33,092 bases of DNA from Clostridiales bacterium (lineage in GTDB: Bacteria; Bacillota; Peptococcia; DRI-13; UBA5745): positions 1-33,092 of the forward strand of contig WRMS01000006.1 of assembly GCA_009777025.1 (NCBI GenBank), read 5' to 3'. The position numbers and the translations under genes are program-made. Below the pieces are notes generated by a model, which was not told the DNA's origin, made no database searches, and saw only the letters and a list, made by a program, of their open reading frames with translations. Each line of letters opens with the position of its first letter. The stretch's first letter is position 1. Shown here piece by piece: positions 775 through 33,092 of the stretch.

Positions 775-3700
775 TTAATGCATTCCTCTTTGCCGTTTCC
801 TCCTTCCCCGGACAGTGACGGCCATGGTGATCAACACCGATGCGTAGAGTACGTACAGCTCCATTGTCATTCCCGGGTAACCTGTCTTCGGTAAGCTTCC
901 CGTCGGCGGCGGATAGGCGATGAATATCCACGTATCCGTATCGTCGTCCCAGCGCCACTCTCCTGTAGGCGTACCGTTCCCGTTCAACTCAACGAAAGTA
1001 TTATCCTCATCAGCAGGAACAATTGTATCCTCCGGACTGATGGGATCCGGCGGAGGCGCGGTAGGTTCAATCGGTTCCGGGTCCGGTCTTATTTCCGGGT
1101 CAGGCGTTCCTGGCTCAGGTGTTTTTACCTCAGGATCAGTCGGCTTCGGGTCTGTCGTTCCCGGATCGGTTGGCTTCGGGTCTGTCGTTCCCGGGCCTGT
1201 TGTTCCTGGATCGGTTGTCCCCGGATCTGTTGTTCCGCCGTTTGGTTTCCAGGTTGCCGTTACGGTTACATCCATAGCAGGCATAATAAAGTTCGCTATT
1301 GCGCTGTTCTTGCCTGTATCATCCAGGACCGCTCCGCCTTCATCGATGGTCCAGCCGGCGAAGGTGTAGCCACTCTGACTGCCTGCGCGGATGGTAACGG
1401 TCACGCCTTCATCATATACGCCCTCTCCGGTTATGGATGGGCCTTCCGCAAAGGCGCCCATGCTCCCGTCAACAGCGAAGCTGTTTTTTACCGTGACTTT
1501 GTATTGCAGGCTTCGGCTCTCCTCCCAATGGGCTTTGACGGTTACATCTTTATCCGGCATGACGAATGAGGTGGTCGCTTCGCTATCCTCCGCCAACACC
1601 ACGCCGCCTTCCTCCACGGTCCACCCTAGGAAGACATAGCCCTTTCGGCTTCCGGCATTTATCGCGACGGTCCTTCCCTCCGCGTAAAGCCCCGCGCCGC
1701 TGTATTCCGCGTAGCTGTCGATCACCTTCACCTTGCTGGTGACAGGCAGTTTGTTCCACTGCGCGTATACGGTCATGCTCACGTGAATGATCGTATCTCC
1801 GGTAAAGCTATAGCCTTTGCCTTCTTTATCCGTATTCCATCCCAGGAATGCATGACCATCCCGTTTCGGATCGTCCGGCATGTTGCCGCCCAGTGCAGTG
1901 CCGGCTTCCACCGTACGGACATCCGTTATTTCTCCGCCAGCAAAGCTACCGCCGTTCGTATCAAAGGTAAGATCCACATAACTGGCAGGCAGTTTCAGGT
2001 ACTTAAAGGCAGCGCCATTGATCCCTTCTACAGGTAGCGTTTCCGTACTCATGTAATAGAATTCATTTAATGTGCTGTTTTTGGGAAATACCGCCATGCT
2101 GGCGTCCTCAACCGCAAGCGTCCCTTCTGATTTTCCAAAAACTGCCCCGTCTTTGCCCCAGAAGCGGGCAAAGCCAATCTTCTCGTCCAGTCCGGGCTCT
2201 ATAAGCGTTTTACTTGACAACAGAATTGCCGGTTCATTTTCGCCGTAGAATACCCCTCCGGTGATGCGTCCGATTTGGGCAGGTTCACCCGTATAGATTG
2301 GTTCACTGGAAACCGCGGCGTAGTTACCGAAGATCTGTCCGCCGGATAGGATGTCGATTTCCCCCCGATTCCGAATGCCATAACTATACGACACATTGAG
2401 AATCGTTCCGCCGCTGATTTCGACGATCTTCCCTCTCGGCTCATTGTCGATACCGGGCCCGCGGTATCCCGATATGTACAGGGATTCCCCGCCGAGCTTT
2501 TCAATCGTACCTGCGTTATACACGCCTGTACCTTCCGCGAACAGCGTCTGATTTCCTTCGCCTATAAAGTATCCACCGGAGATTTCGTTGATCAGCCCAT
2601 CGTAACCATTGAGAAGAGCCATCGTCGCCTCAAACCTCCCGCCTGTGATAGCGCCAATTCTGGCTCCTTGTCCGGACACCAACAAGCCCACATATCCTCC
2701 GCTGACCGTCAGTCCGGAAATGGTTCCGATACTGGTCTCCACCGGGTAGGGTAATCCCACGTCAGAGACGACATGAATCCCCCCATGATTCGTTGAATTA
2801 TTCTCCCTTGTCACAAACTCTCCGCCGCTGATCGCGTCGATTCGTGTGCCGCGATAGACGCCCAGAACCGGGCGGCTGTCCGATTCAAAGTAACCACCGC
2901 TGATCTCGCCAATATAAGACTCGTTCTGTACGACAAAAGCCGTGCTGTTGTAAGTCGGAGCGGTTTTGATAAACCTGCCGCCGGTGATGGCGCCGATACT
3001 TGTCGTCATGCCCTTGTTCCCAAAAAAATTGTTTGTATCCGAAGTCATACTGACCGAGTGCTGGCTGCCAAGAAACTCACCGCCGCTGATAACATGAATC
3101 CTGGCGCCGTTTTCGACTTCCAGCGCATTACGCCCTTGTAGAATTCCGCCGGTTATCGTAGCACTGGCAGCTTTTCCTTCTCTACCGCTCAGCTTTAAGG
3201 CATAACTGGTATCAGTTATATTGATAAGCTTTATGCCGTCATGGATTTCGATTTCGCCGCCGCCGCTGACTTCCATCGTTTGACTGTCGGACGATAGCGT
3301 GACAATATTATCTTTCGTTCCATCGCCCAGGACGAGCCTGGCGCCTTCGCCAAGTACCAGGATACTGCTCCTTAGCTGAATTGTGTGCGCACCGCACACC
3401 CCGACGATGGTGACGTCGGTGTCCGGGGACACGAGAATAAATCTTGTTTCTGAGAAATCTTCATGAATCTCAATCGTAACGGGACCTGCATCCTTTGCCG
3501 CTTCAAAAGCGTCATATAGCGTGTCATAAAAAGTACCCGTTTCGCGAATACTGACTTTACCAGCCGCAGGAAAATCTCTGAACGGCCTCGTTTCGCCAAT
3601 CCCCCTGGCGCCAGTTTCTTCAAAGGCAATCTTTGCATCACTCTCAGCCTTTTCCAAAGTAAGGCCTTCCTCTGTTTTGCCATCCTCCGCAATGGTAAGG

Positions 3701-3834
3701 ATCGGCATAGTCTCATCCGCCAGCACCGAAAAAGGCGCCATATATATCGATGTCAAAAATACAACGACTAGCATAAAAGCCAGCAATTTTGTTGCAGTAT
3801 GTTTGCTGTGTTCGCCAAAAGCTATTTTTCGCAT
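775..3834 (-). CDS. LPXTG-anchored surface protein with beta-helix-like repeats and InlB B-type repeats, 1019 aa
   Basis: Predicted to be exported and covalently attached to peptidoglycan by sortase. Residues 1-40 form a signal peptide (basic start, hydrophobic core, VLA-DE cleavage-like site). Residues about 80-590 hold around a dozen rungs with an [IV][ST]GGxF core (ISGGYF, ITGGRF, ISGGEF), as expected for a right-handed parallel beta-helix. Next comes a Listeria-Bacteroides repeat (TFDTNGG...FLGWNTD...VYAQW, about 620-690), then two divergent InlB B-repeats (about 695-855), a Pro/Thr/Asp/Gly wall-spanning spacer, LPKTG at 981-985, a hydrophobic segment and the tail RGRRKRQRG. GGAGG sits 9 nt before the ATG, so the start is secure. 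It stands alone between two terminators; no sortase gene is in view. The ligand is unknown; adhesion is an inference from architecture. Confidence 0.9.
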   Translation of the reverse strand: MRKIAFGEHSKHTATKLLAFMLVVVFLTSIYMAPFSVLADETMPILTIAEDGKTEEGLTLEKAESDAKIAFEETGARGIGETRPFRDFPAAGKVSIRETGTFYDTLYDAFEAAKDAGPVTIEIHEDFSETRFILVSPDTDVTIVGVCGAHTIQLRSSILVLGEGARLVLGDGTKDNIVTLSSDSQTMEVSGGGEIEIHDGIKLINITDTSYALKLSGREGKAASATITGGILQGRNALEVENGARIHVISGGEFLGSQHSVSMTSDTNNFFGNKGMTTSIGAITGGRFIKTAPTYNSTAFVVQNESYIGEISGGYFESDSRPVLGVYRGTRIDAISGGEFVTRENNSTNHGGIHVVSDVGLPYPVETSIGTISGLTVSGGYVGLLVSGQGARIGAITGGRFEATMALLNGYDGLINEISGGYFIGEGNQTLFAEGTGVYNAGTIEKLGGESLYISGYRGPGIDNEPRGKIVEISGGTILNVSYSYGIRNRGEIDILSGGQIFGNYAAVSSEPIYTGEPAQIGRITGGVFYGENEPAILLSSKTLIEPGLDEKIGFARFWGKDGAVFGKSEGTLAVEDASMAVFPKNSTLNEFYYMSTETLPVEGINGAAFKYLKLPASYVDLTFDTNGGSFAGGEITDVRTVEAGTALGGNMPDDPKRDGHAFLGWNTDKEGKGYSFTGDTIIHVSMTVYAQWNKLPVTSKVKVIDSYAEYSGAGLYAEGRTVAINAGSRKGYVFLGWTVEEGGVVLAEDSEATTSFVMPDKDVTVKAHWEESRSLQYKVTVKNSFAVDGSMGAFAEGPSITGEGVYDEGVTVTIRAGSQSGYTFAGWTIDEGGAVLDDTGKNSAIANFIMPAMDVTVTATWKPNGGTTDPGTTDPGTTGPGTTDPKPTDPGTTDPKPTDPEVKTPEPGTPDPEIRPDPEPIEPTAPPPDPISPEDTIVPADEDNTFVELNGNGTPTGEWRWDDDTDTWIFIAYPPPTGSLPKTGYPGMTMELYVLYASVLITMAVTVRGRRKRQRGMH
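1135..1236 (-). repeat. short tandem repeats encoding the TDPGT/TDPKP wall spacer
   Basis: Degenerate 15- to 36-bp units rich in GGATCGGTTG and GGTCTGTCGTTCC encode the proline-rich segment before the LPKTG motif. Such runs commonly vary in length between strains. Confidence 0.7.
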
Positions 3835-15229: not shown

Positions 15230-15604
15230 ATGGATAAAATTATAAATCTACTCGTTTCCATCAACAATAACCATTTTCGGCGTTATCTGTTCGTGCTTTT
15301 GCCTCTGTTAACGGTTTTGATTTCCCTATATAATATTGTAGATTTCTTACCCGAAAACCAGTTCTATGCCAGCGGAAGCATTGTAGTAATCATAATGGCT
15401 GCTTATTTCTCTATTCTGTACTGGGTATCCCATCGAAGAGATTTATTTTGCATGACTTCACTCATGATTTTTTTTCTTTGTTCGATCTTCAATTTTATTG
15501 CTAACCGTGTATATGCATTTATCAATGTTTTGATGTTAACGTTACTTATTGCTGTCTTTATCATCACAATGTTCGTTCGGTTTTCTCCACGTCGATACGG
15601 ATAA
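15230..15604 (+). CDS. small four-TM membrane protein, copy A1, 124 aa (unknown family)
   Basis: Not recognised. It begins MDKIINLLVSINNNHFRRYLFVLLPLLTV, an amphipathic start leading into the first membrane segment. Four hydrophobic segments follow, and the protein ends in a conserved basic tail VRFSPRRYG. A second copy at 16102 shares the first 25 residues and the last 9 almost exactly, while the middle has diverged. The ATG has the strong site TTAGGAGGTAACT. Codon use is clearly AT-richer than in the flanking operons, suggesting acquisition from elsewhere. Possible roles include immunity or an accessory membrane subunit, but nothing in the sequence decides this. Confidence 0.75.
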   Translation: MDKIINLLVSINNNHFRRYLFVLLPLLTVLISLYNIVDFLPENQFYASGSIVVIIMAAYFSILYWVSHRRDLFCMTSLMIFFLCSIFNFIANRVYAFINVLMLTLLIAVFIITMFVRFSPRRYG

Positions 15605-15654
15605 AGCAACCCTTGACATGACAGGGAGGGCATTCAAATGATCGCTGTTATGAT
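15573..15654 (+). repeat. 82-bp direct repeat, left copy (right copy 16442-16523)
   Basis: From TCGTTCGGTTTTCTCC to ATGATCGCTGTTATGAT, the end of A1, the 33-bp spacer and the start of the next ORF appear identical to 16442-16523, offset by 869 bp. Perfect identity in a spacer points to recent duplication or gene conversion. Confidence 0.85.
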
Positions 15655-15793
15655 TATTTATATTTGTTTCCTCCTATTTTACATACGCTTTCAAATATCT
15701 ACTATTGTTAAGCTCAGAAATAATCTAAAGAAGTATTCCGCAGTATTGCTAATGGAGAGGAGGTCATGGTTTGACGCAAAGAGAGATTATTAA
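15638..15793 (+). pseudogene. truncated copy (B1) of the downstream membrane protein, 51 codons
   Basis: The first 39 codons (MIAVMIIYICFLLFYIRFQISTIVKLRNNLKKYSAVLLM) match the start of the 172-aa protein at 16507-17025, apart from a 3-codon indel and a few substitutions. After SAVLLM the sequences part abruptly, and the frame runs out in ERRSWFDAKRDY before TAA. It keeps a GGGAGGG ribosome site. The break falls exactly where the next ORF's ribosome site (AGGAGG) begins, as expected if a foreign segment was joined there. Only one membrane helix remains, so it is probably a remnant, though a short peptide could still be made. Confidence 0.6.
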
Positions 15794-16088
15794 CTTAACA
15801 ATAGGTGGTTTTTGGACTGTTTACCATTTGACCTATGCGGTAAAAACGCTGATCATGATCAGGAAAAAACGCAGGTCGAAAGAAACTCTCAGTAGTCACA
15901 AATGGATTCGTGCTGTGATCTATGTGGGGTTAGTGTTGGGTTTTCTTGGTTTTTCCATTCCTATCTCATCAATTGTGTATGGCGATTTCTCAAGATTCAT
16001 CGGAGACTCACTACTCCCGGGCGTGTTTTTCTTACCGACATTTATTTTGGTCAGAGGGAAGAAAAGAAAAGAAATGAACGAAAGTTGA
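15771..16088 (+). CDS. small three-TM membrane protein, 105 aa (unknown family)
   Basis: Not recognised. Three hydrophobic segments (INLTIGGFWTVYHLTYAVKTLIMI; WIRAVIYVGLVLGFLGFSIPISSIVYG; LLPGVFFLPTFILV) are separated by the basic loop RKKRRSKETLSSHK, and the protein ends in a lysine-rich tail. It starts at TTG with AGGAGG 7 nt upstream and overlaps the last codons of the truncated B1 copy. It has no second copy in the window and lies between the two A copies, so it is either an insert that split the duplicated unit or the original neighbour of one unit. It is AT-rich like the rest of the cassette. Confidence 0.65.
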   Translation: MTQREIINLTIGGFWTVYHLTYAVKTLIMIRKKRRSKETLSSHKWIRAVIYVGLVLGFLGFSIPISSIVYGDFSRFIGDSLLPGVFFLPTFILVRGKKRKEMNES

Positions 16089-16101
16089 TTTAAGACAGGA
16101 T

Positions 16102-16473
16102 ATGGATAGAATCATCAATCTGCTCGTTTCCATCAACAATAACCATTTCAAGCGATATCTGTTCGTGCTTTTGCCTCTGTTCACGGTTTTGCTTAGCATT
16201 ATAAGAATAAGAGATATCGCCCCGGAAGGATTGTATTTTGCAGGGAACGTGATGCTATTGTTTGCTGCGGTTTTTATGTTCTGTCTGTATTGTTATTCAA
16301 AAAAAAGAGATTTGTTCTGCGTTGTTGCGACAATCGATTTTTTTCTTTTCGCGATACTTCTATTTTTTGTCGACCGCTTGAATATAATAATAGTATTATT
16401 TGCGCTTGCCGGTATCATCTTCATATACATCATCATGTTTCTCGTTCGGTTTTCTCCACGTCGATACGGATAA
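16102..16473 (+). CDS. small four-TM membrane protein, copy A2, 123 aa (paralogue of A1)
   Basis: Paralogue of the protein at 15230: MDRIINLLVSINNNHFKRYLFVLLPLFTVLLS at the start and LVRFSPRRYG at the end are nearly the same, while the middle (YFAGNVMLLFAAVFMFCLYCYSKKRDLFCVV) keeps only the pattern of hydrophobic segments and the RRDLFC/KRDLFC loop. The A1 ribosome site is not retained here. Only a weak AGGA lies close to the ATG, so translation may depend on coupling to the gene ending 13 bp upstream. Conserved ends with a diverged core suggest selection or gene conversion acting differently on termini and membrane core. Function unknown. Confidence 0.75.
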   Translation: MDRIINLLVSINNNHFKRYLFVLLPLFTVLLSIIRIRDIAPEGLYFAGNVMLLFAAVFMFCLYCYSKKRDLFCVVATIDFFLFAILLFFVDRLNIIIVLFALAGIIFIYIIMFLVRFSPRRYG

Positions 16474-16523
16474 AGCAACCCTTGACATGACAGGGAGGGC
16501 ATTCAAATGATCGCTGTTATGAT
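16442..16523 (+). repeat. 82-bp direct repeat, right copy (left copy 15573-15654)
   Basis: Partner of the repeat described at 15573. It spans the A2 end, the intergenic spacer with its GGGAGGG site, and the first codons of the full-length B protein. Confidence 0.85.
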
Positions 16524-17025
16524 GGCTGTTATAATTATTTATATTTGTTTTATCCTATTTTACATATGCTCTCAAATATCTACTGTTGTTAAGTTCAGAA
16601 ATAATCTCAAGAAGTATTCCGCAGTATTGCTAATGAATAGATTTTATCTAGCTGCACTGGTGGTTGTAATGCTTATAAGCTTGTCAATGATAACCAAAGC
16701 TGCGTTCGATGTATTATCTAGTATACAGCGAAATAGTAACGAACAGCTTCCCTTTGCCATATATGCACTTCCACTCATAACCACTTCATTTAGCTCTGCA
16801 TTGTCTGAAGGTTTATATGCTTTTGGCAACGGATATCTTGTCGGGTACAAATCGGTCGTCCCAATTACATCCGTTACGTTAAAGAAACTGTCTGTTAAAA
16901 AACTGAACAGAGTGAAAGCTGTGCTGTCGATTCACGATCAAAACAAGGCAAAGGCAATAGACATCGTTATGCGAACTTCAAAAAAGAATTTTGACGAGCT
17001 TGCGAAAGCCATCGAAACACAATGA
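16507..17025 (+). CDS. membrane protein B2, 172 aa, three TM plus cytoplasmic C-terminal domain (unknown family)
   Basis: Full-length member of the pair whose truncated copy lies at 15638. Hydrophobic segments are at about 7-24, 47-66 and 80-108, and the remaining 60 residues are soluble and basic (GYKSVVPITSVTLKKLSVKKLNRVKAVLSIHDQNKAKAIDIVMRTSKKNFDELAKAI). That tail alternates strands and ends in a helix, resembling the small PH-like domains found after membrane helices in YcxB-type proteins; this is only a resemblance. GGGAGGG lies 8 nt before the ATG. It always follows an A gene with the same 33-bp spacer, so A and B probably work as a pair. Confidence 0.75.
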   Translation: MIAVMMAVIIIYICFILFYICSQISTVVKFRNNLKKYSAVLLMNRFYLAALVVVMLISLSMITKAAFDVLSSIQRNSNEQLPFAIYALPLITTSFSSALSEGLYAFGNGYLVGYKSVVPITSVTLKKLSVKKLNRVKAVLSIHDQNKAKAIDIVMRTSKKNFDELAKAIETQ

Positions 17026-17117
17026 TGCGCATAGAGGATGATGCCTAGATGGTATACCTCCTCATCCGCCGACATGACATCAATGACTGCGGAGCAGTTT
17101 GTCTCACGATCATATTC

Positions 17118-17216
17118 AAGCGACACGGTTTGCCCCCGCCAAAGAATTAGGAGGTAACTACGGATAGAATCATCAATATCCGGCTTTCCTCTAGCGAAGC
17201 GCGTAGTGCGCCTTAA
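17118..17216 (+). pseudogene. decayed third copy of the cassette start (leader, RBS and first codons of an A gene)
   Basis: The segment matches the A1 leader: GACAC-GTTTGC...CCC, then TTAGGAGGTAACT followed by aCGGATAGAATCATCAAT. The ribosome site is intact, but the start codon is ACG instead of ATG. The frame reads D-R-I-I-N as in A2, then diverges and stops at 17214-17216, overlapping the end of the opposing UroD-like gene. It is therefore a remnant from which the rest was lost. The stretch 17026-17117 before it holds nothing I recognise. Confidence 0.5.
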
Positions 17217-21118: not shown

Positions 21119-24100
21119 ATGCATTCAAAGCAAACATCATTCTTCAGCAACAGGAAAAAGGGCATGCTATTCAAGTTACCCTTAGTCGTCATGCTCATCC
21201 TGCAGCTTGCGGCTTCGCCGCTGCTGGCTCTCGTGGAAGAACCGCTTCCGGAGAGCTTGTTTAGCGTCTATCCTGAAGCGGATAATCCCGGCTTAAGCGA
21301 GGCTTTGCCTGACGGTAATCCCGACTATCATGATGAGGATACGGATTACCCCAGTCTGGTACCTTTAGATGACGAAGTCGTCGATCGGTTTATTTCGCTC
21401 CTTACCGAACCGGAGGATATTCATACTATAGAAGGCGCTGTCGCCGGAAGCCTGTTCGTGGAAGCGCTGGGCTTCGAAAGCGAACTGACTTTTCAATGGT
21501 TCGAAGGGGCATTTGCGACAGACAGAAGCGGTCTGCTCATTGAAGGCGCAACAAAATCCATGTTCGATATCCCGCCTGATCTGGACGCCGGTACGTACTA
21601 TTACTATTGTATCGTCAGTGCGGAAGACGCGGTAAGCGCGATCAGCATAGCAGCGATCGTGACTGTCGAACCCCCGAAATACATTCGCTATATCGATTCC
21701 ATCCCGGACGCCAATTTCCGCAGCTTTGTGCTGTCGTATTTGAACTGGGACGGCGGCAGACGAACGGACGACAGCCCCATTACAGATGCGGACATAGCGA
21801 CGCTGGCTGTCATCTCCCAGTTGGTCCTCAGCGACATGGGAATTGCCGATCTGACGGGGATTCAGCTTTTTACCGGGCTTCAGGTTCTGGATTGCCGCGG
21901 TAACTTTCTGACCTCGCTGGATTTGTCTTATAATCCAAACCTCAGCTCCCTCTATTGCGCAAACAACCAGCTGACAGGTTTGGACGTCTCTGCAAACCTC
22001 GTGCTAAACCGGCTCATCTGCAATAATAACGATATGGCTTCTCCGGATGATGTGATAGGCTGGGAGGCAATCGGCCTGATGATCAACAGCCCGGACAATT
22101 TGGGGAGCGGTTCGTTCCACTTCTATAACCAAAGAGGCGTGATCGAAAAACCCCAGATCAAGATTACTGCCCAGCCGGTGAACGGAACAATGGGGCTGAT
22201 CAACGGCAGGCTGGATTACAGCTGCATCTTAAGTGTAGCAGCTGAAATCAACAGCGGCGACAAACTGTATTATCAGTGGTATTGGCTTACAGGCGAGGCG
22301 CCGGATCCGAACGCGGATATTCCGGTCGGCGCGGAAGCGTCATTGGAGGTAACGCCTGAACTTGTAGACTTCCAGTACCAATGGCTGTATACGTTCTATT
22401 GTGTGATTCACGCGGATTCGGCGGAAAGCGTAATCAGCGACATAGCCGAGGTTGAACTGACTGAAATCATGATGTGTCCCGATACCAGCTTCTTCCTCCA
22501 GCCCGAAGCAATGACCATCGTAACGGAGGGCGCTATCAGCGGAAGCTTATATGCCGAAGCCGTGACCTACAAAGTGGATGTAGCCTATCAATGGTTCCGT
22601 ACCGATACGCCGGATGATTATTACTATGCTACCCCCATCGCAGGCGCTACCTCCCCGGAATTTGTCATACCGGAGGACTTAACCGCAGACGGCAGCCCCT
22701 ATTATTTCTACTGCAGGGCCGCCGGCTGGGTAGACGTAGACATAAGCGAGCTCGCCACCGTCGTTGTCGAGCCGAAGAAGACCGATTTTATCACTTATGC
22801 GGAAGCCTTCCCGGACGCCAATTTCTGCGCCGCTGTGCTGAAGCTGATTAACGCCGGCGACGAAATCAACAGGACAGAGGATAGCCCGCTTACCGAGGAG
22901 GACCAGCGCTTTCTGGCGGCGGTGGAAGAGCTTGATCTCTTTAAGCTCAACATCACGGATCTGACCGGCTTACCCTACTTCAGCGGTATGATCCGTTTCT
23001 CTTGCGCCGGAAATCAGTTGACAAAGCTGGACGTGCGCCCGTTCACCGCCCTCGAATGGCTTTCCTGCCATGAAAATCAGCTTACCGATTTGGATGTATC
23101 GCAGAATACGGCCCTGGAAAGGCTGACCTGCTACGACAACCGGCTGGAGACGCTAATTCTGACGGAAAACGCGGCCCTTCAAGTCCTCTATTGCTATAAC
23201 AACCGGCTGGAAATGCTCTATCTGACAGATAATCCGCTGCTCAGCGAGCTGGCGTGCAACAATAACCGGATTCAATGGCTGGATGTAAGTCAAAACCCAT
23301 CCCTGCTCTCTCTGTATTGTGACGACAATCTGCTTCTGGATCTGGATATCACGCAAAACACGGCGCTGCTCAACCTTAGCTGTTCCAACAATATACTGAC
23401 AGACTTGGATGTGTCGCAAAATAGCGCCCTCCGCACAATCGATTGTTCCGGCAACCTGCTGTACGAGCTGGATGTGACGCAAAACCCCTTACTGAGTGAT
23501 TTGCTTTGCGCGGACAACCGGTTAGTCAAGCTTGATGTGTCAAATTCAACAGGTCTCGCCTATATCGATTGCAGCAACAATTTACTGGAGGAATTGGACG
23601 TTTCCCAAAATGCGGCCCTCTTATATCTTTACTGCTTCGAAAACCGGCTGACAGGCTTGGAACTGGCGAAAAGCGATACGATATGGCGGCTTTACTGCTA
23701 TAACAACTATATGACTTCCCCGGACGATGTGATCGGCTGGCAGACTAAGAACAATCTGGTGATCAATAGCCCCGGCAATCTGAATAGCGGTACCTTCCGT
23801 TATTTCAACCAAAAGTCCGGTGTTATCCGTCCGTCTATCATCATCCGGTCTCAGCCGGAGGATTTGCTCATCCTCATTCAGGATGAGATAACAAGCCCCG
23901 ATACCCTGACCATTGACGCGATTGCAAACCCGGATGCAGAGCTTACTTATGCCTGGTACCAGCTCCTAGGCGAGGAACCAAACCCTGCTACGGACAGGTT
24001 TATGGCCACAGGGGCAAGCTTCTCTGTTGCCCCCCTTCTGTCATCGTATCCATACGGAGGACTCTTCTATTTCTACTGTGTCGTCGGTGCGGAAAACGCG

Positions 24101-27100
24101 GACAGCGTGATCAGCAGGGTAGCATACGTCTATATTACGTATGTCTTTGTAGATCCCGGCGTTGAAATTGTTACCCAGCCCGAGGCGAACACCACCGTCA
24201 CCGAAGGGGAAATTGAAGGCAGCTTGTATATCCACGCGAAACCCATCGGCAATACAACTGTATCGTATCAGTGGTACCGCAATACCAGCGCATCCAACAC
24301 AGGCGGTATGCGCATCGAAGGCGCCACATCGCCCGAGTTTATGATCCCGGCGGATCTGACGGCGGACGGCAGCCCCTATTACTATTACTGTGTAGCAAGT
24401 GGCGGAATCGACTCCCCGGCGAGCGAGGTCGCGACTGTGACGGTCGTCACAAAATCGACCTTCACCACGATCGAGATTATCACACAGCCCTTGAGCGGCA
24501 GGCTGCGGATCATCAACGGCAGGTTGGATTACAGCTACATCTTGTACGTTGAAGCCGAAGCCGATAACGGCGCCACTTTGCAGTATCAGTGGTTCTATCG
24601 CAGCGGTTCGGCGCCGAATCCCGGGTACGACCGGCTGGTGGGGTCGGAAGCCGATTTGGAAATCAGCATAGAGCTGCTGAGCGGCTTCAGCCATTTGCAG
24701 AGTTATGACTTCTACTGTATCGTTAGCGCGGAAGGTGCGGACAGCGTAACCAGTTCCGCGGCGAATATCAATGTCGTGGATACGACTATGTATCCCGACA
24801 CCTTCTTCCTGCTTCAACCCGCCGCCGAAACCGTCGTCACTGAAGGCTTCATCAGCGGCAGTTTATACGCCGAAGCATGGACCTACAAAGTGGATGTGGA
24901 ATACCAGTGGTACAGCATGCTTTCGGCGGATCCGGCGTCTGGCATAACGCCTATCGAAGGCGCTACCTCCCCATCCTTCAGGATCCCGGCGGATCTGGCG
25001 GCGGACGGCAGCCCCTATTATTTCCTCTGTGGCGCTTCCGGATGGACGGAAGTGATTTTCAGTAATCCTGCTGTCGTTGTCGTCAAACCGGAGCCAGGCC
25101 AGATAACCTATGAAGCCGCCTTCCCGGACGTCAATTTCCGGGACGCTGTGATTGCCCTGCTGAATACGGACGGCGGCGACAGAGCCGGCGACAGTGTCAT
25201 CAGTGAAGACGACTTGATGCGTATGGCGCGCATGACAGAGCTGCATATTTCCAATCAGCGCATCGCCGATCTGACAGGGATAGCATACTTCCCCTCTCTG
25301 CTAACGCTGGATTGCAGCAACAACCAGCTGACTGCTCTGGATGTTTCGCAGAATGCCGGTCTGCGCATACTGTCCTGCCAGTTTAACGCGATAACGGAGT
25401 TGGATCTTTCCTCCAACCCCGCGCTTCTGGTGTTGAATTGCAACAACAATCGTTTGGTTTCCCTCATTCTGACGCAGAACAGGGCGCTTCTGTCGCTCAA
25501 CTGCGCAGGCAACAATCTGGCGAAACTGGACTTGACGGGGGTTCTCGATCTATCTGTGCTCTTCTGCCAGGAAAACGACCTGACGGCATTGAATCTGACG
25601 AATAACGCCAGCCTGATGCATCTGGAATGCTGGGACAACCCGCTGACCGATCTGGATCTGAGCGGGAATCCCTACCTGACAACCCTGATCTGTGGACGCT
25701 TTGATAGCGGCGAAGGCTTCCTGACTGAACTGGATGTATCGCAAAACAAGGAATTGGTTTACATCTGGTGCAGCGGTAATCAGCTCTCAAGCCTGGATGT
25801 ATCGCAAAATACCAAGCTGAACAGGCTATTCTGCAATGACAACTACATTGCTTCCCCGGACGACGTAAAGGGCTGGCAGGAGATCGGGCTGGAGATCAAC
25901 AGCCCGGAATCCCTGAATGCTGGGACATTCCGCTACTATAACCAGAAAGAGACCATTGCCAAGCCAGTCATCACGATTCTGTCCCAGCCTGAGGACAAGG
26001 TGCTGATTTACCAGGATGGCATACTCGTCGGGACCGATGACCTGCACATTACTGCGGAAGCGACGCTTGGCGCAGAATTAACCTATACCTGGTATCTACT
26101 CCTTGGCGAAGAACCGGATCCCACTAAAGATGAAGCGGTAATTACAGGGGCCGACATCTCCCTGACGCAGCTGTTATCGCCGGCAGTCGCGGAAATATAC
26201 TACTTCTACTGTGTGGTCGCCGCGGAAGGCGCAGACAATGTAATCAGCAGAGTAGTGGAAGTGACGATCCTCGGGTCTATCACCGGTCCCGATGTGCAGA
26301 TCATCGCCCAACCTGCCGAAAATACGGTTGTTACCGAAGGGGAAATCGAAGGCAGTTTGTGCATCGACGCGATCCCCATTGGTACGGATACGGTGTTCTT
26401 TCAATGGTACATCAATACTGTCGCCTCCAACGAAGGCGGTTCGCCCATTTATAGCTCGCCTACTTCCTCGGATTTTCCGATTCCGACGAACCTGACAGCC
26501 GACGGCAGCCCCTATTACTTCTACTGCGAAGCATCCGTCGGTTCCACTAGTAAATTCAGCGACGTAGCGATAGTCACGGTACTGCCGGCAAAGACCGGCG
26601 TCACCTACGCGGAAGCTTTCCCGGACGCCAATTTCCGAGAAGCGGTGCTGGGATTGTTGAATGCGGACGGTGGCGACAGAACCGGCGAAAGCCATCTCAG
26701 CGAAGCCGACCGCGCGTGGATGGCAGGGCTGGAAGAATTGGAAATTTTCAACAGAAGCATCGCGGATATGACCGGCCTGGCCTATTTTACCGGGCTATCG
26801 TACTTGCATTGCTCCGACAACCAATTGACGGAATTGGATGTAACGCAAAACACGGAGCTCGAGTACCTAAATTGTTGGAACAACCTGCTGGTAGAACTGG
26901 ATGTAAGCCAAAACACCGCATTGCGGATCCTTGACGTAGGAGATAATCTCCTGACAGAGCTGGATTTATCCAATAATGCGATGCTGGTCAATCTGTATTG
27001 CGACTATAACCTCTTGGCAGAACTGGATGTAAGCCAAAACACGGAGCTCGAGAACCTAGATTGTCGGAACAACCTGCTGGCAGAACTGGATGTAAGCCAA

Positions 27101-30100
27101 AACACGGAGCTCGAGAACCTAAATTGTTCGAACAACCTGCTGGCAGAGCTGGATGTAAACCAAAACACGGAGCTCGAGAACCTAGTTTGTTCGAACAACC
27201 TGCTGACAGAACTGGATGTAAGCCAAAACACCGCACTACGGAGCCTTGACGTAGACGATAACCTCCTAACAGAGCTGGATGTAAGCCAAAACCCAGACCT
27301 GAAGTATTTACATTGCTCCGGTAATATGCTGACCGGGCTGGACTTCACGCTGAACCCGGCCCTCGAGGATCTGTTTTGCGACGATAACCTCCTGACAGAG
27401 CTGGATGTAAGCCAAAACCCATACCTGCAGTATTTATGTTGCTCCGGCAATATGCTGACCGGGTTGAATGTAACGCAAAATCCTTTCCTTTGGATTCTAT
27501 ACTGTTTGGATAACCTCCTGACAGAGCTGGATGTAACGCAAAATCCTTTCCTTTGGAAACTGTATTGTTCGAACAACCTCCTGACCGAACTAGATGTGAC
27601 GCAAAATACGGAGCTCGAGTACCTAGATTGTTCGAACAACCTGCTAACCGAGTTGGATGTGACAAATAATCCATCCTTTTGGGAGCTTTATTGCTACGAC
27701 AACTACATGACTTCCCTGGATGACGTCGCCGGTTGGCAGGCGCTGGGGCTTAAGATCAACAGCCCTGATAACCTGGATAGCGGAGATTTCCGCTTCTATA
27801 ACCAGAAGTCGAGTATTGTCGAACCGATCATCACGATTCTGTCTCAGCCTGAGGACCTGACAGTGAATTTCCAGGATGGCATACTCATCGGGAGCGATAC
27901 CTTGAGCATCGCCGCGGAAGTGAAGCCTGAGACAGAATTAACCTATACCTGGTATCAGCGTCTTGGCGAAGACCCGGATCCGGCGAAAGACAGGCCTGTC
28001 GGCAATGAAACAAGCCTGGCCATATCGCCGCTGCTGCCGGAAGGCCTTGCGATTGGCTTCTACTACTATTACTGTGTGGTTGGCGCGGAAAACGCGATCG
28101 ACGTAACCAGCAGAGTCGCGGAAGTATTTGTTGCCCATGCCATCACCGATCCGGGCGTACAGATCCTTGCCCACCCCGCCGAAAACACTGTTGTTACCGA
28201 AGGGGAAATCGGAGGCAGTTTGTGCATCGACGCGATCCCCATTGGTACGGATACAGTGTACTTTCAATGGTACAGCAATACTGTCGCCTCCAACAAAGGC
28301 GGTACGCCAATTTATGGCGCGACTTCCCCGGATTTTGCGATTCCGGCGGATCTAACGGCGGACGGCAGCCCCTATTACTTCTATTGCGAGGCATCCGTCG
28401 TGTTCACCAGCGAATTCAGCGATGTTGCGATGGTCACGGTACTGCCACAGAAGGGCGAACTCACTTATGCGGAGGCTTTCCCGGACGACAATTTCCGCGC
28501 GGCAGTGCTGGAATTGCTGAATGCGGACGGTGGCGACAGAACCGGCGAAAGCCTTCTCAGCGAGACCGACCGCGCGTGGATGGCAGGACTGGAAGTATTG
28601 GACGTGTCTGACAGAAGCATCGCAGATATGACCGGCCTGGCTTATTTTACCGGGCTTTGGGACTTGAATTGCTCCGGCAACTTCCTGACAGAACTGGATG
28701 TAACGCAAAACACGGCGCTCGAGTACATATATTGTTGGAACAACCAATTGGCAGAACTGGATGTAACGCAAAACACGGCGCTCGTGTACCTAGATTGTTG
28801 GAGCAACCTGCTGGCAGAACTGGATGTGCGCCAAAACACCGCATTATTGGTTCTTGACGCAGGAGATAATCTCCTGACAGAGCTGGATGTTAGACAAAAC
28901 ACAGACCTGATGCGCCTCTATTGCGACAATAACCTCCTGACAGAACTGGATGTAAGCCAAAACTCAGACCTGCAGTTTTTATATTGCTCCGGCAATATGC
29001 TGACCGGGCTGGACGTCACGCTGAACCCGGCACTCGAGGATCTGTATTGCGAGAATAACCTCCTGACAGAACTGGATGTAACGCAAAACCCAGACCTACA
29101 GTATTTATATTGCGCCGGCAATATGCTGACCGGGCTGGACGTCACGCTGAACTCGGCCCTCGAGGATCTGTATTGCGAGAATAACCTCCTGACAGAGCTG
29201 GATGTTAGACAAAACACAGGCCTTATGCACCTCTATTGCAACGGCAACCTATTGACAGAGCTGGATGTGAGGCAAAATACGGAACTCGAGTTCCTAGATT
29301 GTTCGAACAACCTGCTGACCGAGTTGGATGTAACAAATAAACCATACCTTAATATGCTTTATTGCTACGACAACTACATGACTTCCCTGGATGACGTCGC
29401 CGGTTGGCAGGCGCTGGGGCTTAAGATCAACAGCCCCGATAACCCGGATAGCGGAGATTTCCGCTTCTATAACCAGAAGTCTGGTATTGTCGATCCGATC
29501 ATCACGATTCTCTCTCAGCCTGAGGAAATGGAAGTACGGTTCACGGATGGTAAACCCAACGGAGAATATAGCCTGCACATTGCCGCTGAAGTAACCGCCG
29601 ACATAGAGCTGCACTACTTCTGGTATCAACTCCTTGGCGCGCTACCGGATCCGGCTGTCGATACGCTGGTGGGTACGGACGCCGATTTACTCCTGACGCC
29701 GCTGGTGGCGCAGGAACCCGCAGCATTGTACTTCTACTGTGTAGTCACCGCGGAAGGCGCAGCCAGTGTAACGAGCAGGGTAGTGGAAGTCGAAGTCGTC
29801 ATCATTACCTCAGACCCCGGTGTGAAGATTCTCACACATCCTGCGGAGAACACCATTGTTACGGAAGGGGCGATTCAGGAAAGCCTGTTCATCGAAGCTA
29901 TACCCCTCGGCGACGCCATCGTTTATTACCAGTGGTACAGTCATCCGATCGCACTTAATACAGGCGGCACGCCCATTGTCGGCGCCACTTCCCCCACGTT
30001 TGCGATTCCCACGGACCTGACAGCGGAGGATAGCCCCTATTACTTCTACTGCGAAGCTTCCGTCATATTCACCAATGAATTCAGCCTTGTCGCAACGGTC

Positions 30101-33092
30101 ACGGTACTGCCGCCGAAAGAAGGAATCACCTTCGAAGAAGCTTTCCCGGATGATAATTTCCGCGCGGCGGTGCTGGAATTGCTGAATGCGGACGGCGGCG
30201 ACAGAACCGGCGAAAGCCTTCTCAGCGAAGCCGACCGCGCGTGGATGGCAGCCTTAACGGAACTGAATGTAAGCTATCGAACGATCGCCGACCTGACCGG
30301 GATAGCCTACTTTACTTCTTTGGAAACGCTGAATTGCAGGAACAACTTGCTGACCAGCCTGGATGTAACGCAGAATACGAATCTGGTGAATCTGTCCTGC
30401 CAAGAAAACGCGTTGACGGCGCTTGACCTGTCCGCCGCACCTGCCCTGGCGGTATTGAATTGCTTTAGCAATCAGCTGGCGGAACTCGACCTGTCAAACA
30501 ACCCGGCGCTGGTCAGGCTGAACTGTACAGACAATGCGCTGACCAAGCTGGATGTGACAGGCAATACGGCGCTGACCTATCTTAACTGTCAGGAGAATGA
30601 CATTGCTGCGCTCAATGTGACCAACAACACCGCCCTGACGTATCTCGAATGCTGGAACAACCCGCTGACGGAGTTGGATGTGTCGCAGAATACCGCCCTG
30701 ACCGTCCTGATCTGCGGACGCTTTGACGGCGGCGAAGGCTTACTGACGGAACTGGATGTGTCGCAAAATACCGAACTGATCCAACTGGAGTGCTGGGGAG
30801 AACTGACAGAACTGGATCTTTCTCAAAACACGAAGCTCGTCAGGCTGCATTGCGGCGGCAACCTGCTGACAAGCCTGGATTTGTCAAACAACCCGGAACT
30901 TCAGGTCGTCTACTGCGGCGACAACCTCCTGACTGAACTGGATTTATCCCATAACGCGATGCTGTTCGAGCTGTATTGCGCCAATAATCTCTTGACGAAG
31001 ATCGACCTGTCGGGAAGCCCCGCTTTGCAGCTCCTGTCCTGCGGCGGCAATAAGCTGGAGGATTTGGATGTATCCGCTACGCCGGCACTGGCTTTCCTCT
31101 GGTGCAGCGATAATCAACTCGCCTCCCTGGATGTGACGGTGCTTCCCGCGCTTGTGCAGCTATACTGCCAGGGTAATCGCCTGACTGCGCTGGACGTCAC
31201 GATGAACCCCGAACTGGATTGGCTGTTCTGCTATAACAACCAACTGACTGGCTTGGATGTATCCCATTCTGCTACTGCAGGCCTTACGAGACTCTATTGC
31301 TACAACAACTACATGACTTCCCCGGATGACGTCATTGGTTGGAACTTACACAGCTATCTGCAGAGCATCAACAGCCCCGGCAATCTGGAAAGCGGCAACT
31401 TCCGCTACTACAACCAGCTCGACCCCTCAGTGGAGCCGGGCGTCATTATCACCATCCAGCCTGCGCCGGAAACAATCGTAACAGAGGGCGAAATCCTCGA
31501 AAGCTTGTATATCGAAACGATTCCCATCGGCAATGCGCAGATAAGCTATCAGTGGTATCGCAACGATAATCCGTCGAACAGCGGCGGTACGCCCATTGAA
31601 GGTGCGCAGGCGTCGGTCTTTGCGATTCCCGCTGACTTGACAGCCGGCGGCAGTCCCTATTACTTCTACTGTGTAGCAACGGGAGGGACCAGCCATGATG
31701 TGAGCGATATCGCAATGGTGACGGTTGTTCTTCCCCAAGTAAGCCTAACCTATGCCGAAGCTTTCCCCGACGCCAACTTCCGCGAAGCGGTACTGGAGAT
31801 CGTGAATGACGCGGACGATGGTGACAGAACAGGCGCAAGCGCTGTCTCCGCCGGAGATATCGCCTTCCTTGCCGGGATAGAGGTATTGGATGTATCCGGC
31901 AGAGGCATCGCCGATTTGACCGGGATCGCGTACTTCCCCGGGCTGGTCGCACTGGATTGCAAAGACAATGTTCTGACCGCGCTGAACTTGAGCCCCCTGG
32001 TAAACCTGGAAGATTTGAACTGTAATCTCAACCAGCTGACTTCTCTGGATTTGACGATGTTGCCTACGCTGCTTTCGGTGACCTGCAACAGAAACCTGTT
32101 GACGGAGATTCACGTGGCGGGACTTGAGAATCTTGCGACATTGGGCTGTGGTTCAAATCAAATCGGGACGCTTGATTTATCAGGCTTAAGTAGCCTCGAA
32201 AACTTGTTCTGTGACAATAATCTGCTTACGGACCTGAATCTGTCGGGCCTGGACGCGCTGGAGGCTGTCTGGTGTTATAACAATCGCCTGACAGGGCTGG
32301 ACCTGCGGGAAACACCCGGGATTGGATGGCTGGCCTGCTACGAAAATGATATGGTCTCGCCGGACAGCGTCCTCGGCTGGGAGGATTTGGACTTGATCAT
32401 CAATAAGACCGACGACCTGAATACCGGCACCTTCCTCTTCCATAATCAGAGAACCACCTCCGTGGTCGTCGAACTGACAGAGATCGCTGTGACCACGCCG
32501 CCGGCGGTTATCGAATATATACAAGGCGAAGCGCTTTCCCTGGCGGGCATGGTCGTCACTGCCCATTATAGCGACGGCAGTGAAGCCACCGTCACAGGTT
32601 ACACTGCAGAGCCGGCTGAGGGTACAATTCTTGATTCACTTGGCGATGTGACAGTCACGCTGCGTTATACCGAGGGGGTCGTCACCGGCACAGCCGCGTT
32701 CCTTGTCCATGTCGAGCCGGCGCCGGTCGCCGTCATACTGGATAGTATCAGCATTTCCACCTATCCCCAACAAACCGAATACACGCTTGGCGACGCCCTT
32801 TCCTTGGCGGGCATGGTCGTCACTGCCCATTACAGCGACGGAAGCACAAGTCCGGTCACAGGCTTTAGCACAGATGTAGAGGCGGGAACCATATTGGATA
32901 CGCCCGGCACACAGACCGTGACAGTAAGCTACACGGAGGACGGCATAACCGTTACTGCTTCGTTCAGCATAATGGTGGATGTAGCGGTTGCCGACCCGGT
33001 ATTGGACGGCGTCAGTATCGGTGCTTATCCGACAAAGACAAGTTATATTGCAGGAGAGAGGCTTGACCTGAGTGGGCTGTCTATTATTGCCA
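21119..33092 (+). CDS. giant secreted LRR / Ig-like repeat surface protein, at least 3991 aa, 3' end outside the window
   Basis: One uninterrupted frame by my reading, missing from the ORF track because it has no stop in the window. Residues 1 to about 40 are a signal peptide (basic FFSNRKKG, then a hydrophobic core). Approximate domains: Ig-like 101-188; LRR1 191-341; two Ig 344-551; LRR2 560-904; four Ig 905-1327; LRR3 1330-1611; two Ig; LRR4 1830-2234; two Ig; LRR5 2448-2791; two Ig; LRR6 3003-3436; one Ig; LRR7 3543-3781; then at least three bacterial Ig-like (Big_3 type) units. Each LRR domain opens with AFPDANFR...LLNADGGDR and closes with SPDDVIGW...INSPxNL...FRYYNQ; the repeat is 21 residues (LxCxxNxLTxLDVSxNTxLxx). 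The Ig-like modules share YQWY, GATSPxFxIPADLTADGSPYYFYC. It is probably a cell-surface binding protein; the anchor lies beyond the window. GGGGGAGG sits 8 nt before the ATG. Confidence 0.95.
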   Translation, partial: MHSKQTSFFSNRKKGMLFKLPLVVMLILQLAASPLLALVEEPLPESLFSVYPEADNPGLSEALPDGNPDYHDEDTDYPSLVPLDDEVVDRFISLLTEPEDIHTIEGAVAGSLFVEALGFESELTFQWFEGAFATDRSGLLIEGATKSMFDIPPDLDAGTYYYYCIVSAEDAVSAISIAAIVTVEPPKYIRYIDSIPDANFRSFVLSYLNWDGGRRTDDSPITDADIATLAVISQLVLSDMGIADLTGIQLFTGLQVLDCRGNFLTSLDLSYNPNLSSLYCANNQLTGLDVSANLVLNRLICNNNDMASPDDVIGWEAIGLMINSPDNLGSGSFHFYNQRGVIEKPQIKITAQPVNGTMGLINGRLDYSCILSVAAEINSGDKLYYQWYWLTGEAPDPNADIPVGAEASLEVTPELVDFQYQWLYTFYCVIHADSAESVISDIAEVELTEIMMCPDTSFFLQPEAMTIVTEGAISGSLYAEAVTYKVDVAYQWFRTDTPDDYYYATPIAGATSPEFVIPEDLTADGSPYYFYCRAAGWVDVDISELATVVVEPKKTDFITYAEAFPDANFCAAVLKLINAGDEINRTEDSPLTEEDQRFLAAVEELDLFKLNITDLTGLPYFSGMIRFSCAGNQLTKLDVRPFTALEWLSCHENQLTDLDVSQNTALERLTCYDNRLETLILTENAALQVLYCYNNRLEMLYLTDNPLLSELACNNNRIQWLDVSQNPSLLSLYCDDNLLLDLDITQNTALLNLSCSNNILTDLDVSQNSALRTIDCSGNLLYELDVTQNPLLSDLLCADNRLVKLDVSNSTGLAYIDCSNNLLEELDVSQNAALLYLYCFENRLTGLELAKSDTIWRLYCYNNYMTSPDDVIGWQTKNNLVINSPGNLNSGTFRYFNQKSGVIRPSIIIRSQPEDLLILIQDEITSPDTLTIDAIANPDAELTYAWYQLLGEEPNPATDRFMATGASFSVAPLLSSYPYGGLFYFYCVVGAENADSVISRVAYVYITYVFVDPGVEIVTQPEANTTVTEGEIEGSLYIHAKPIGNTTVSYQWYRNTSASNTGGMRIEGATSPEFMIPADLTADGSPYYYYCVASGGIDSPASEVATVTVVTKSTFTTIEIITQPLSGRLRIINGRLDYSYILYVEAEADNGATLQYQWFYRSGSAPNPGYDRLVGSEADLEISIELLSGFSHLQSYDFYCIVSAEGADSVTSSAANINVVDTTMYPDTFFLLQPAAETVVTEGFISGSLYAEAWTYKVDVEYQWYSMLSADPASGITPIEGATSPSFRIPADLAADGSPYYFLCGASGWTEVIFSNPAVVVVKPEPGQITYEAAFPDVNFRDAVIALLNTDGGDRAGDSVISEDDLMRMARMTELHISNQRIADLTGIAYFPSLLTLDCSNNQLTALDVSQNAGLRILSCQFNAITELDLSSNPALLVLNCNNNRLVSLILTQNRALLSLNCAGNNLAKLDLTGVLDLSVLFCQENDLTALNLTNNASLMHLECWDNPLTDLDLSGNPYLTTLICGRFDSGEGFLTELDVSQNKELVYIWCSGNQLSSLDVSQNTKLNRLFCNDNYIASPDDVKGWQEIGLEINSPESLNAGTFRYYNQKETIAKPVITILSQPEDKVLIYQDGILVGTDDLHITAEATLGAELTYTWYLLLGEEPDPTKDEAVITGADISLTQLLSPAVAEIYYFYCVVAAEGADNVISRVVEVTILGSITGPDVQIIAQPAENTVVTEGEIEGSLCIDAIPIGTDTVFFQWYINTVASNEGGSPIYSSPTSSDFPIPTNLTADGSPYYFYCEASVGSTSKFSDVAIVTVLPAKTGVTYAEAFPDANFREAVLGLLNADGGDRTGESHLSEADRAWMAGLEELEIFNRSIADMTGLAYFTGLSYLHCSDNQLTELDVTQNTELEYLNCWNNLLVELDVSQNTALRILDVGDNLLTELDLSNNAMLVNLYCDYNLLAELDVSQNTELENLDCRNNLLAELDVSQNTELENLNCSNNLLAELDVNQNTELENLVCSNNLLTELDVSQNTALRSLDVDDNLLTELDVSQNPDLKYLHCSGNMLTGLDFTLNPALEDLFCDDNLLTELDVSQNPYLQYLCCSGNMLTGLNVTQNPFLWILYCLDNLLTELDVTQNPFLWKLYCSNNLLTELDVTQNTELEYLDCSNNLLTELDVTNNPSFWELYCYDNYMTSLDDVAGWQALGLKINSPDNLDSGDFRFYNQKSSIVEPIITILSQPEDLTVNFQDGILIGSDTLSIAAEVKPETELTYTWYQRLGEDPDPAKDRPVGNETSLAISPLLPEGLAIGFYYYYCVVGAENAIDVTSRVAEVFVAHAITDPGVQILAHPAENTVVTEGEIGGSLCIDAIPIGTDTVYFQWYSNTVASNKGGTPIYGATSPDFAIPADLTADGSPYYFYCEASVVFTSEFSDVAMVTVLPQKGELTYAEAFPDDNFRAAVLELLNADGGDRTGESLLSETDRAWMAGLEVLDVSDRSIADMTGLAYFTGLWDLNCSGNFLTELDVTQNTALEYIYCWNNQLAELDVTQNTALVYLDCWSNLLAELDVRQNTALLVLDAGDNLLTELDVRQNTDLMRLYCDNNLLTELDVSQNSDLQFLYCSGNMLTGLDVTLNPALEDLYCENNLLTELDVTQNPDLQYLYCAGNMLTGLDVTLNSALEDLYCENNLLTELDVRQNTGLMHLYCNGNLLTELDVRQNTELEFLDCSNNLLTELDVTNKPYLNMLYCYDNYMTSLDDVAGWQALGLKINSPDNPDSGDFRFYNQKSGIVDPIITILSQPEEMEVRFTDGKPNGEYSLHIAAEVTADIELHYFWYQLLGALPDPAVDTLVGTDADLLLTPLVAQEPAALYFYCVVTAEGAASVTSRVVEVEVVIITSDPGVKILTHPAENTIVTEGAIQESLFIEAIPLGDAIVYYQWYSHPIALNTGGTPIVGATSPTFAIPTDLTAEDSPYYFYCEASVIFTNEFSLVATVTVLPPKEGITFEEAFPDDNFRAAVLELLNADGGDRTGESLLSEADRAWMAALTELNVSYRTIADLTGIAYFTSLETLNCRNNLLTSLDVTQNTNLVNLSCQENALTALDLSAAPALAVLNCFSNQLAELDLSNNPALVRLNCTDNALTKLDVTGNTALTYLNCQENDIAALNVTNNTALTYLECWNNPLTELDVSQNTALTVLICGRFDGGEGLLTELDVSQNTELIQLECWGELTELDLSQNTKLVRLHCGGNLLTSLDLSNNPELQVVYCGDNLLTELDLSHNAMLFELYCANNLLTKIDLSGSPALQLLSCGGNKLEDLDVSATPALAFLWCSDNQLASLDVTVLPALVQLYCQGNRLTALDVTMNPELDWLFCYNNQLTGLDVSHSATAGLTRLYCYNNYMTSPDDVIGWNLHSYLQSINSPGNLESGNFRYYNQLDPSVEPGVIITIQPAPETIVTEGEILESLYIETIPIGNAQISYQWYRNDNPSNSGGTPIEGAQASVFAIPADLTAGGSPYYFYCVATGGTSHDVSDIAMVTVVLPQVSLTYAEAFPDANFREAVLEIVNDADDGDRTGASAVSAGDIAFLAGIEVLDVSGRGIADLTGIAYFPGLVALDCKDNVLTALNLSPLVNLEDLNCNLNQLTSLDLTMLPTLLSVTCNRNLLTEIHVAGLENLATLGCGSNQIGTLDLSGLSSLENLFCDNNLLTDLNLSGLDALEAVWCYNNRLTGLDLRETPGIGWLACYENDMVSPDSVLGWEDLDLIINKTDDLNTGTFLFHNQRTTSVVVELTEIAVTTPPAVIEYIQGEALSLAGMVVTAHYSDGSEATVTGYTAEPAEGTILDSLGDVTVTLRYTEGVVTGTAAFLVHVEPAPVAVILDSISISTYPQQTEYTLGDALSLAGMVVTAHYSDGSTSPVTGFSTDVEAGTILDTPGTQTVTVSYTEDGITVTASFSIMVDVAVADPVLDGVSIGAYPTKTSYIAGERLDLSGLSIIA
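27011..27262 (+). repeat. 63-bp tandem repeats inside LRR4
   Basis: Units begin at 27011, 27074, 27137 and 27200 and encode 21-residue leucine-rich repeats. The first three differ from one another at only a few positions around GGCAGAACTGGATGTAAGCC; the fourth diverges in its second half. Similar units continue less perfectly on both sides. Confidence 0.85.
28991..29242 (+). repeat. 126-bp tandem repeat (two LRR units) inside LRR5
   Basis: GGCAATATGCTGACCGGGCT starts at 28991 and again at 29117, exactly two 63-bp LRR units apart, and the first 90 or so bases of each unit are almost identical. A related copy of this pair occurs in LRR4 near 27321-27470. Confidence 0.8.
32476..33092 (+). repeat. 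tandem bacterial Ig-like (group 3 type) domains, 264-bp period, cut by the window edge
   Basis: Three units with the pattern Y-x-x-G-x-x-L-x-L-x-G-M-V-V-T-A-x-Y-S-D-G-S, the last one incomplete. TGGCGGGCATGGTCGTCACT occurs at 32541 and again at 32805, exactly 88 codons apart, with almost no changes around it. Such domains usually form stalks lifting the binding region off the cell surface. Confidence 0.85.

What the first reader, a model, noticed from the sequence alone, without database searches (positions are those of the whole stretch)
21119..33092. Giant modular LRR/Ig surface protein gene (at least 3991 codons) not in the ORF track
The plus-strand frame from ATG 21119 is open to the last base of the window. 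It alternates seven LRR domains with a dozen or so Ig-like modules and ends in Big-type stalk repeats. Individually the modules are known; the alternating order at this scale, with dedicated opening (FPDxNFR) and closing (SPDDVxGW) caps for each LRR block, is unusual. Seven separate LRR faces on one chain suggest multivalent binding to host glycans, other cells or polymers (inference).
Basis: partly seen in the sequence, partly recalled or inferred. Interest (0 to 1): 0.85.

Follow-up and report, generated by a model that had tools for sequence, protein, structure and literature searches.

The report
Giant seven-headed internalin-like surface protein
This gut-type bacterium carries a real gene for a giant cell-surface protein that strings seven internalin-J-type binding domains between pairs of immunoglobulin-like spacers, which makes it an unusually large, multi-headed version of a common kind of bacterial adhesin rather than a new kind of system.

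Summary
The plus frame from ATG 21119 is open for 3991 codons, to the last base; the window is a whole metagenome-assembled contig, so the assembly cuts the gene. Shown: an N-terminal hydrophobic segment, 7 LRR blocks, 14 Ig modules (6 type A, 8 type B) and at least two and a half Big_3 modules.

The LRR is not a new type. It is the 21-residue internalin-J "cysteine ladder" (IRREKO) repeat. PDB 3bz5 is the best hit by sequence and by predicted fold. The opening cap is the internalin helical cap. Multi-block precedents exist (five caps in Clostridium sp. Marseille-P3244). Seven blocks alternating with Ig doublets is the extreme in my sample and occurs only in this genome.

Contig C127 of the same genome opens in the second half of a Big_3-like module, about where the window stops, and ends in three SLH domains. 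The join is inferred, and synteny did not test it.

Most likely function: an SLH-anchored, multivalent fibrillar adhesin binding through aromatic-rich LRR faces. The ligand is unknown. New variant of a known kind; moderate interest.

The parts
21119..33091 (+). Open reading frame of the giant LRR/Ig surface protein, 3991 codons, 3'-truncated by the contig end
21119..21229 (+). N-terminal positively charged and hydrophobic segment, signal-peptide-like (residues 1-37)
   Evidence: read from the translation; no signal-peptide predictor available
21380..21676 (+). Ig module, type B, copy 1
   Evidence: alignment A1
21686..22150 (+). LRR block 1 with N-cap and C-cap
22160..22783 (+). Ig doublet A1-B2
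22793..23827 (+). LRR block 2
23840..25096 (+). Double Ig doublet A2-B3-A3-B4; A3-B4 is closest to A1-B2
25106..25963 (+). LRR block 3 (folded with the following Ig doublet: InlJ-like)
25973..26596 (+). Ig doublet A4-B5
26603..27823 (+). LRR block 4
27833..28456 (+). Ig doublet A5-B6
28463..29494 (+). LRR block 5, recent duplicate of block 4 (caps 81-93% identical in protein)
29504..30121 (+). Ig doublet A6-B7
30128..31429 (+). LRR block 6
31439..31741 (+). Single Ig module B8
31748..32467 (+). LRR block 7
32474..33091 (+). Big_3 stalk: two whole modules and the first part of a third, cut by the contig end
   Evidence: Pfam PF07523 at residues 3882-3953 and 32762-32977; the others by sequence repeat

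Best explanation
The gene encodes a secreted, cell-surface-anchored, multi-headed fibrillar adhesin of the internalin-J type. Seven InlJ-like cysteine-ladder LRR solenoids, each with an internalin N-cap, are spaced along one rod by pairs of Ig-like modules. The rod ends in a Big_3 stalk and most probably in three C-terminal SLH domains that hold it non-covalently to the cell wall. Binding is probably through the aromatic-rich strand faces of the LRRs, and seven heads give avidity for a repetitive target such as host or dietary glycan, mucus or peritrophic polymer, or a neighbouring cell. Shown: the open frame, modules, LRR class and predicted fold. Inferred: secretion, SLH anchor, adhesion, multivalency. 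Unknown: ligand.
For: LRR class: phmmer best hit is InlJ 3bz5, E 1.3e-61; NCBIfam internalin_J is the top family, E 1e-296, though below its strict cut-off. AlphaFold of unit 3 has mean pLDDT 82, helical N-cap, strands every 21 residues and two Ig folds. The top fold match is again 3bz5, E 1.3e-15. Of 71 Cys-strand units, exposed positions 3/5/7 are 27/41/24% Y/W/F against 8.9% in the whole protein; the nested D-type units have 0-2%. Anchor: the genome has 28 SLH matches. Same-genus G003 has an InlJ-type LRR protein ending in SLH. Contig C127 opens in a Big_3-like half and ends in 3 SLH, while the window gene is the only curated Big_3 hit in the assembly. Function of the class: InlJ-type LRRs are a prevalent fibrillar-adhesin head (PMC9210967). 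InlJ, InlB and InlC LRRs were reported sufficient for MUC2 binding (PMC5397405). P. gingivalis InlJ mediates cell-cell binding (PMC5915736).
Against: No ligand, expression or localisation data. The 3' end is missing, and the C127 join has no sequence overlap; synteny with relatives was uninformative. A second paralogous SLH end (C132) could belong to this gene instead. Two weak sortase hits exist in the genome, so LPXTG anchoring is not excluded. The authors of PMC5397405 themselves say direct LRR-mucin interaction is not proven. The fold model rests on five paralogous rows with pTM 0.54, so relative domain orientation is not established.
Confidence: 0.72

Rival explanations
1. It is mainly a structural S-layer or sheath component: the LRR and Ig modules serve as a long mechanical rod or self-assembly surface, and homotypic LRR-LRR contacts hold cells or layers together rather than binding a foreign ligand.
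For: The family is rich in SLH proteins, with 6 to 70 SLH matches per genome. S-layers are reported as common in the class Dehalobacteriia, if this genome belongs there (PMC10327494). Several other SLH ORFs of about 2,700-3,000 codons exist in this genome.
Against: Constrained but diverged faces with aromatic enrichment on the exposed strand positions look like ligand sites. The seven-block gene is found in one genome of five in its genus, which is unlike a core S-layer protein.
Confidence: 0.15
2. The LRR array is a diversification reservoir: seven blocks recombine to vary the displayed binding face, as in phase- or antigen-variable surface proteins, so that the array rather than avidity is the point.
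For: Blocks 4 and 5 are recent duplicates, and the Ig doublet A3-B4 is a displaced copy of A1-B2. Paralogous fragments C86 and C59 are present in the same genome. Contigs C6, C86, C59, C127 and C132 all end inside such genes.
Against: Most blocks are old (synonymous sites near saturation), the D-type strand positions are conserved, and no recombinase family was seen among the window proteins scanned.
Confidence: 0.08
3. The reading frame is a mis-assembly that fuses repeats of several separate genes.
For: Metagenome assembly with 170 contigs; related repeats on several contigs.
Confidence: 0.05

Closest known systems
Internalin J (InlJ) of Listeria monocytogenes, PDB 3bz5
   Same: 21-residue LxxLxCxxN cysteine-ladder LRR, helical internalin N-cap, Ig-like module following, best sequence and fold match; surface adhesin.
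   Different: One LRR block with a MucBP domain and LPXTG anchor in InlJ; here seven blocks, Ig doublets, Big_3 and probably SLH.
IRREKO LRR class (Matsushima et al. 2010, PMC2946307)
   Same: Second subtype LxxLxCxxNxLxxLDLxxNxx, nested 10/11-residue periodicity (observed).
   Different: The abstract and the section read describe the repeat class, not seven-block chains; the rest of that paper and its supplements were not checked.
Multi-block InlJ-type LRR proteins, e.g. L025 (Clostridium sp. Marseille-P3244, 1828-codon ORF, 5 full caps) and L028 (Oscillospiraceae MAG, 1552 codons, 4 full and 1 partial cap)
   Same: Several capped LRR blocks separated by other modules on one chain.
   Different: Fewer blocks; no match to the Ig A/B modules or to the SPDDVxGW closing cap.
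LRR-SLH protein of the same genus (G003:C66, 1872 aa from ATG)
   Same: InlJ-type LRR, bacterial repeat modules, SLH C-terminus.
   Different: One LRR block, no Ig doublets.
Giant1-5 surface proteins of Apilactobacillus kunkeei (PMC12863079)
   Same: 3,000-8,000-residue extracellular proteins of an insect-associated Bacillota, with domains related to glycan- and cell-binding ones.
   Different: Beta-solenoid head at the N-terminus, not multiple LRR heads.

Membership tests
InlJ-type / IRREKO cysteine-ladder LRR domain | 21-residue repeat LxxLxCxxNxLxxLDLxxNxx with Cys at position 6 | tested here: met
   71 Cys-strand units and 53 L..LD-type units over seven blocks; consensus in PMC2946307
InlJ-type / IRREKO cysteine-ladder LRR domain | Internalin helical N-cap and LRR solenoid fold | tested here: met
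   Predicted helices 13-16, 20-33, 45-53 then strands every 21 residues; best PDB fold match 3bz5
Internalin J protein proper (NCBIfam NF033187) | Whole-protein score above the curated cut-off (1700 bits) | tested here: not met
   986.7 bits; hence not filed as InlJ, only as InlJ-type
Internalin J protein proper | LPXTG sorting signal | not testable with these tools
   C-terminus lies beyond the contig end
Fibrillar adhesin | Adhesive domain plus repetitive stalk modules on a secreted chain | tested here: met
   InlJ-type LRR plus Ig and Big_3 modules; adhesive cluster 15 of PMC9210967 is InlJ. Secretion itself is inferred from the N-terminal segment only.
Fibrillar adhesin | Binds a target (adhesion shown) | not testable with these tools
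   needs experiment
SLH-anchored surface protein | SLH domains in the same polypeptide | tested here: inconclusive
   None inside the window; C127 carries 3 SLH after a Big_3-like half module and is the probable continuation, but no overlap or synteny proof

The most novel reading that the evidence does not exclude
A seven-headed LRR/Ig rod whose blocks have diverged to bind different targets, so that one chain works as a poly-specific cross-linker between the cell, host or food polymer and neighbouring cells: an architecture I did not find described among fibrillar adhesins, which typically carry their adhesive domain on a stalk.
Probability: 0.15. Interest if true: 0.6.

Novelty: new variant of a known kind. 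Interest (0 to 1): 0.4.

Why it matters
It extends the internalin-J head from one or a few copies to seven on one chain, with a regular LRR-IgA-IgB grammar, in a little-known lineage whose surface is rich in SLH proteins. If the heads differ in specificity, it would be a natural multi-target scaffold. If they share it, it is a clear case of avidity built by block duplication. Either is directly testable with single recombinant units.

Tried and rejected
Phage origin: an IMG/VR scan with the N-cap gave no relative. Exact overlap between the window end and the starts of C127, C132 or C86: none. Synteny test of the C127 join: the gene next to the giant gene (HGSNAT-like) is absent from relatives, and no window gene other than partial Mfd-like helicase matches lies near the C127 neighbour gene in four relatives, so it says nothing. 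tRNA, Rfam and PHROGs searches in the window were empty. Mis-assembly and chance frame were considered and set low. I considered calling it an InlJ orthologue and rejected that, because the curated cut-off is not met. The class name Dehalobacteriia is my recollection from UBA7185, whose genome is in the same class; it was not confirmed.

Full report
Observation. The frame from ATG 21119 to 33091 is open for 3991 codons, and it is the only long open frame in the region. The chance of this at the local base composition is about 1e-75. Codon-position GC matches the neighbouring mfd gene, a ribosome-binding-like GGGGGAGG precedes the start, and paralogous modules keep dN/dS well under 1 wherever it can be computed. 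The window is the whole of contig C6 of a 2.11 Mb, 170-contig assembly estimated 85% complete. The gene therefore runs off the contig rather than off an arbitrary window.

Anatomy. After a signal-like segment the order is: IgB1 - LRR1 - IgA1 IgB2 - LRR2 - IgA2 IgB3 IgA3 IgB4 - LRR3 - IgA4 IgB5 - LRR4 - IgA5 IgB6 - LRR5 - IgA6 IgB7 - LRR6 - IgB8 - LRR7 - Big_3 Big_3 Big_3 (cut). All 14 Ig modules share an invariant Trp and Cys. They match Pfam Ig families only weakly; the best PDB hit is an 'immunoglobulin-like domain protein' chain, E 1.2e-8, followed by a tail protein. The repeating grammar is LRR-IgA-IgB. The second linker is doubled, and its second half (A3-B4) is closest to the first linker (A1-B2). 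Units 4 and 5 are the youngest duplicates (N-cap 81%, C-cap 93% protein identity).

LRR class. The repeat is LxxLxCxxNxLxxLD[VL]SxN in 21 residues, with 71 Cys-strand units. That is the second IRREKO subtype, which includes Listeria lmo0331 homologues, and the cysteine ladder of internalin J. InlJ 3bz5 is the best solved-structure hit by sequence and by the fold of unit 3, and internalin_J is the top NCBIfam model, although under its curated cut-off. The opening cap forms three helices before the first strand in the model, which is what I know of internalin caps. Exposed positions of the Cys strands are enriched in Tyr/Trp/Phe (27, 41 and 24% at positions 3, 5 and 7 against 8.9% in the whole protein), while the D-type strands are not. 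Other InlJ-type proteins in the sample show a similar trend, so this is partly a property of the class.

C-terminus. In the same genome, contig C127 (391 codons, open at its 5' edge) starts with TGSAATYTTSPAEDTILSTPG..., the second half of a Big_3-like module, and ends in three SLH domains. The window stops after LDLSGLSIIA, the first half of its third Big_3. By comparison with the window's own second Big_3, about ten residues would be missing (my reading). The only significant nucleotide similarity found is 82% over 45 bases between that second Big_3 and the start of C127. Pfam finds no other Big_3 in the assembly, which favours the join. There is no overlap between the contigs, gene order in relatives did not help, and C132 carries a paralogous SLH end, so I treat the join as probable, not shown. 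A same-genus genome has an InlJ-type LRR protein that does end in SLH.

Relatives. The same genome holds two more fragments of such genes: C86 (1702 codons, two LRR caps, five Ig modules, a beta-helix segment and a Listeria-Bacteroides repeat) and C59 (an N-terminus of 231 codons). In 46 genomes of the class only 5 had a cap at E 1e-8, and in 399 genomes of the phylum only 6. The Ig modules occur in 10 of those 399, and no genome other than this one appears in both sets (the first look scores a limited number of candidates). In named genomes, multi-block chains with 2 to 5 full caps exist, notably Clostridium sp. Marseille-P3244 with five. Seven is the maximum I saw.

Host. The named relatives are mostly gut, rumen and some environmental MAGs. 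The closest cap is 54% identical, in an Oscillospiraceae MAG that I believe, from its sample code, to be from a termite gut. G035 of the same class is Peptococcaceae bacterium UBA7185. The habitat of the window's own organism is not known from these tools.

Mechanism. Best reading: SLH-anchored, seven-headed adhesin, each head an InlJ-type solenoid, the rod made of Ig doublets and Big_3. InlJ-type LRRs are among the most prevalent fibrillar adhesin heads, with more than 170,000 metagenomic homologues. Known members bind MUC2 or other microbial cells, with the caveat that direct LRR-mucin contact has not been demonstrated. The ligand here is unknown. Rivals are a structural S-layer role and a diversification reservoir.

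Novelty. The domain, opening cap, stalk and anchor types are all known. The number of heads and the LRR-IgA-IgB grammar are new to my sample. Hence a new variant of a known kind, moderate interest.

Noticed in passing
window 15230-17160: AT-rich island (GC about 0.37 against about 0.53 around it) with a tandemly duplicated cassette of small, hydrophobic-looking proteins; the ORFs scanned have no Pfam or PHROGs match. Near-identical starts 'GGATA(G/A)AAT...' at about 15230, 16102 and a remnant at about 17162.
   Followed up: partly
window 775-3834 (-): Second surface-type protein at the other end of the contig, 1019 aa, with Listeria-Bacteroides / InlB B-type repeat domains.
   Followed up: no
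L006 (contig C86) 4557-9662 (-): Paralogous LRR/Ig protein, 5'-cut, that carries an inserted Gly-rich beta-helix segment between LRR blocks and ends without SLH.
   Followed up: partly
L083 (G000:C10) and L082 (G000:C5): Three further SLH ORFs of 3072, 2681 and 2938 codons in the same small genome; giant surface proteins are common here.
   Followed up: no
L011, L013, L050-L053, L055-L057: Family relatives share an ORF of about 650-720 codons with a weak match, mostly to the last part of the cap/LRR model; possibly a conserved family protein of its own.
   Followed up: no
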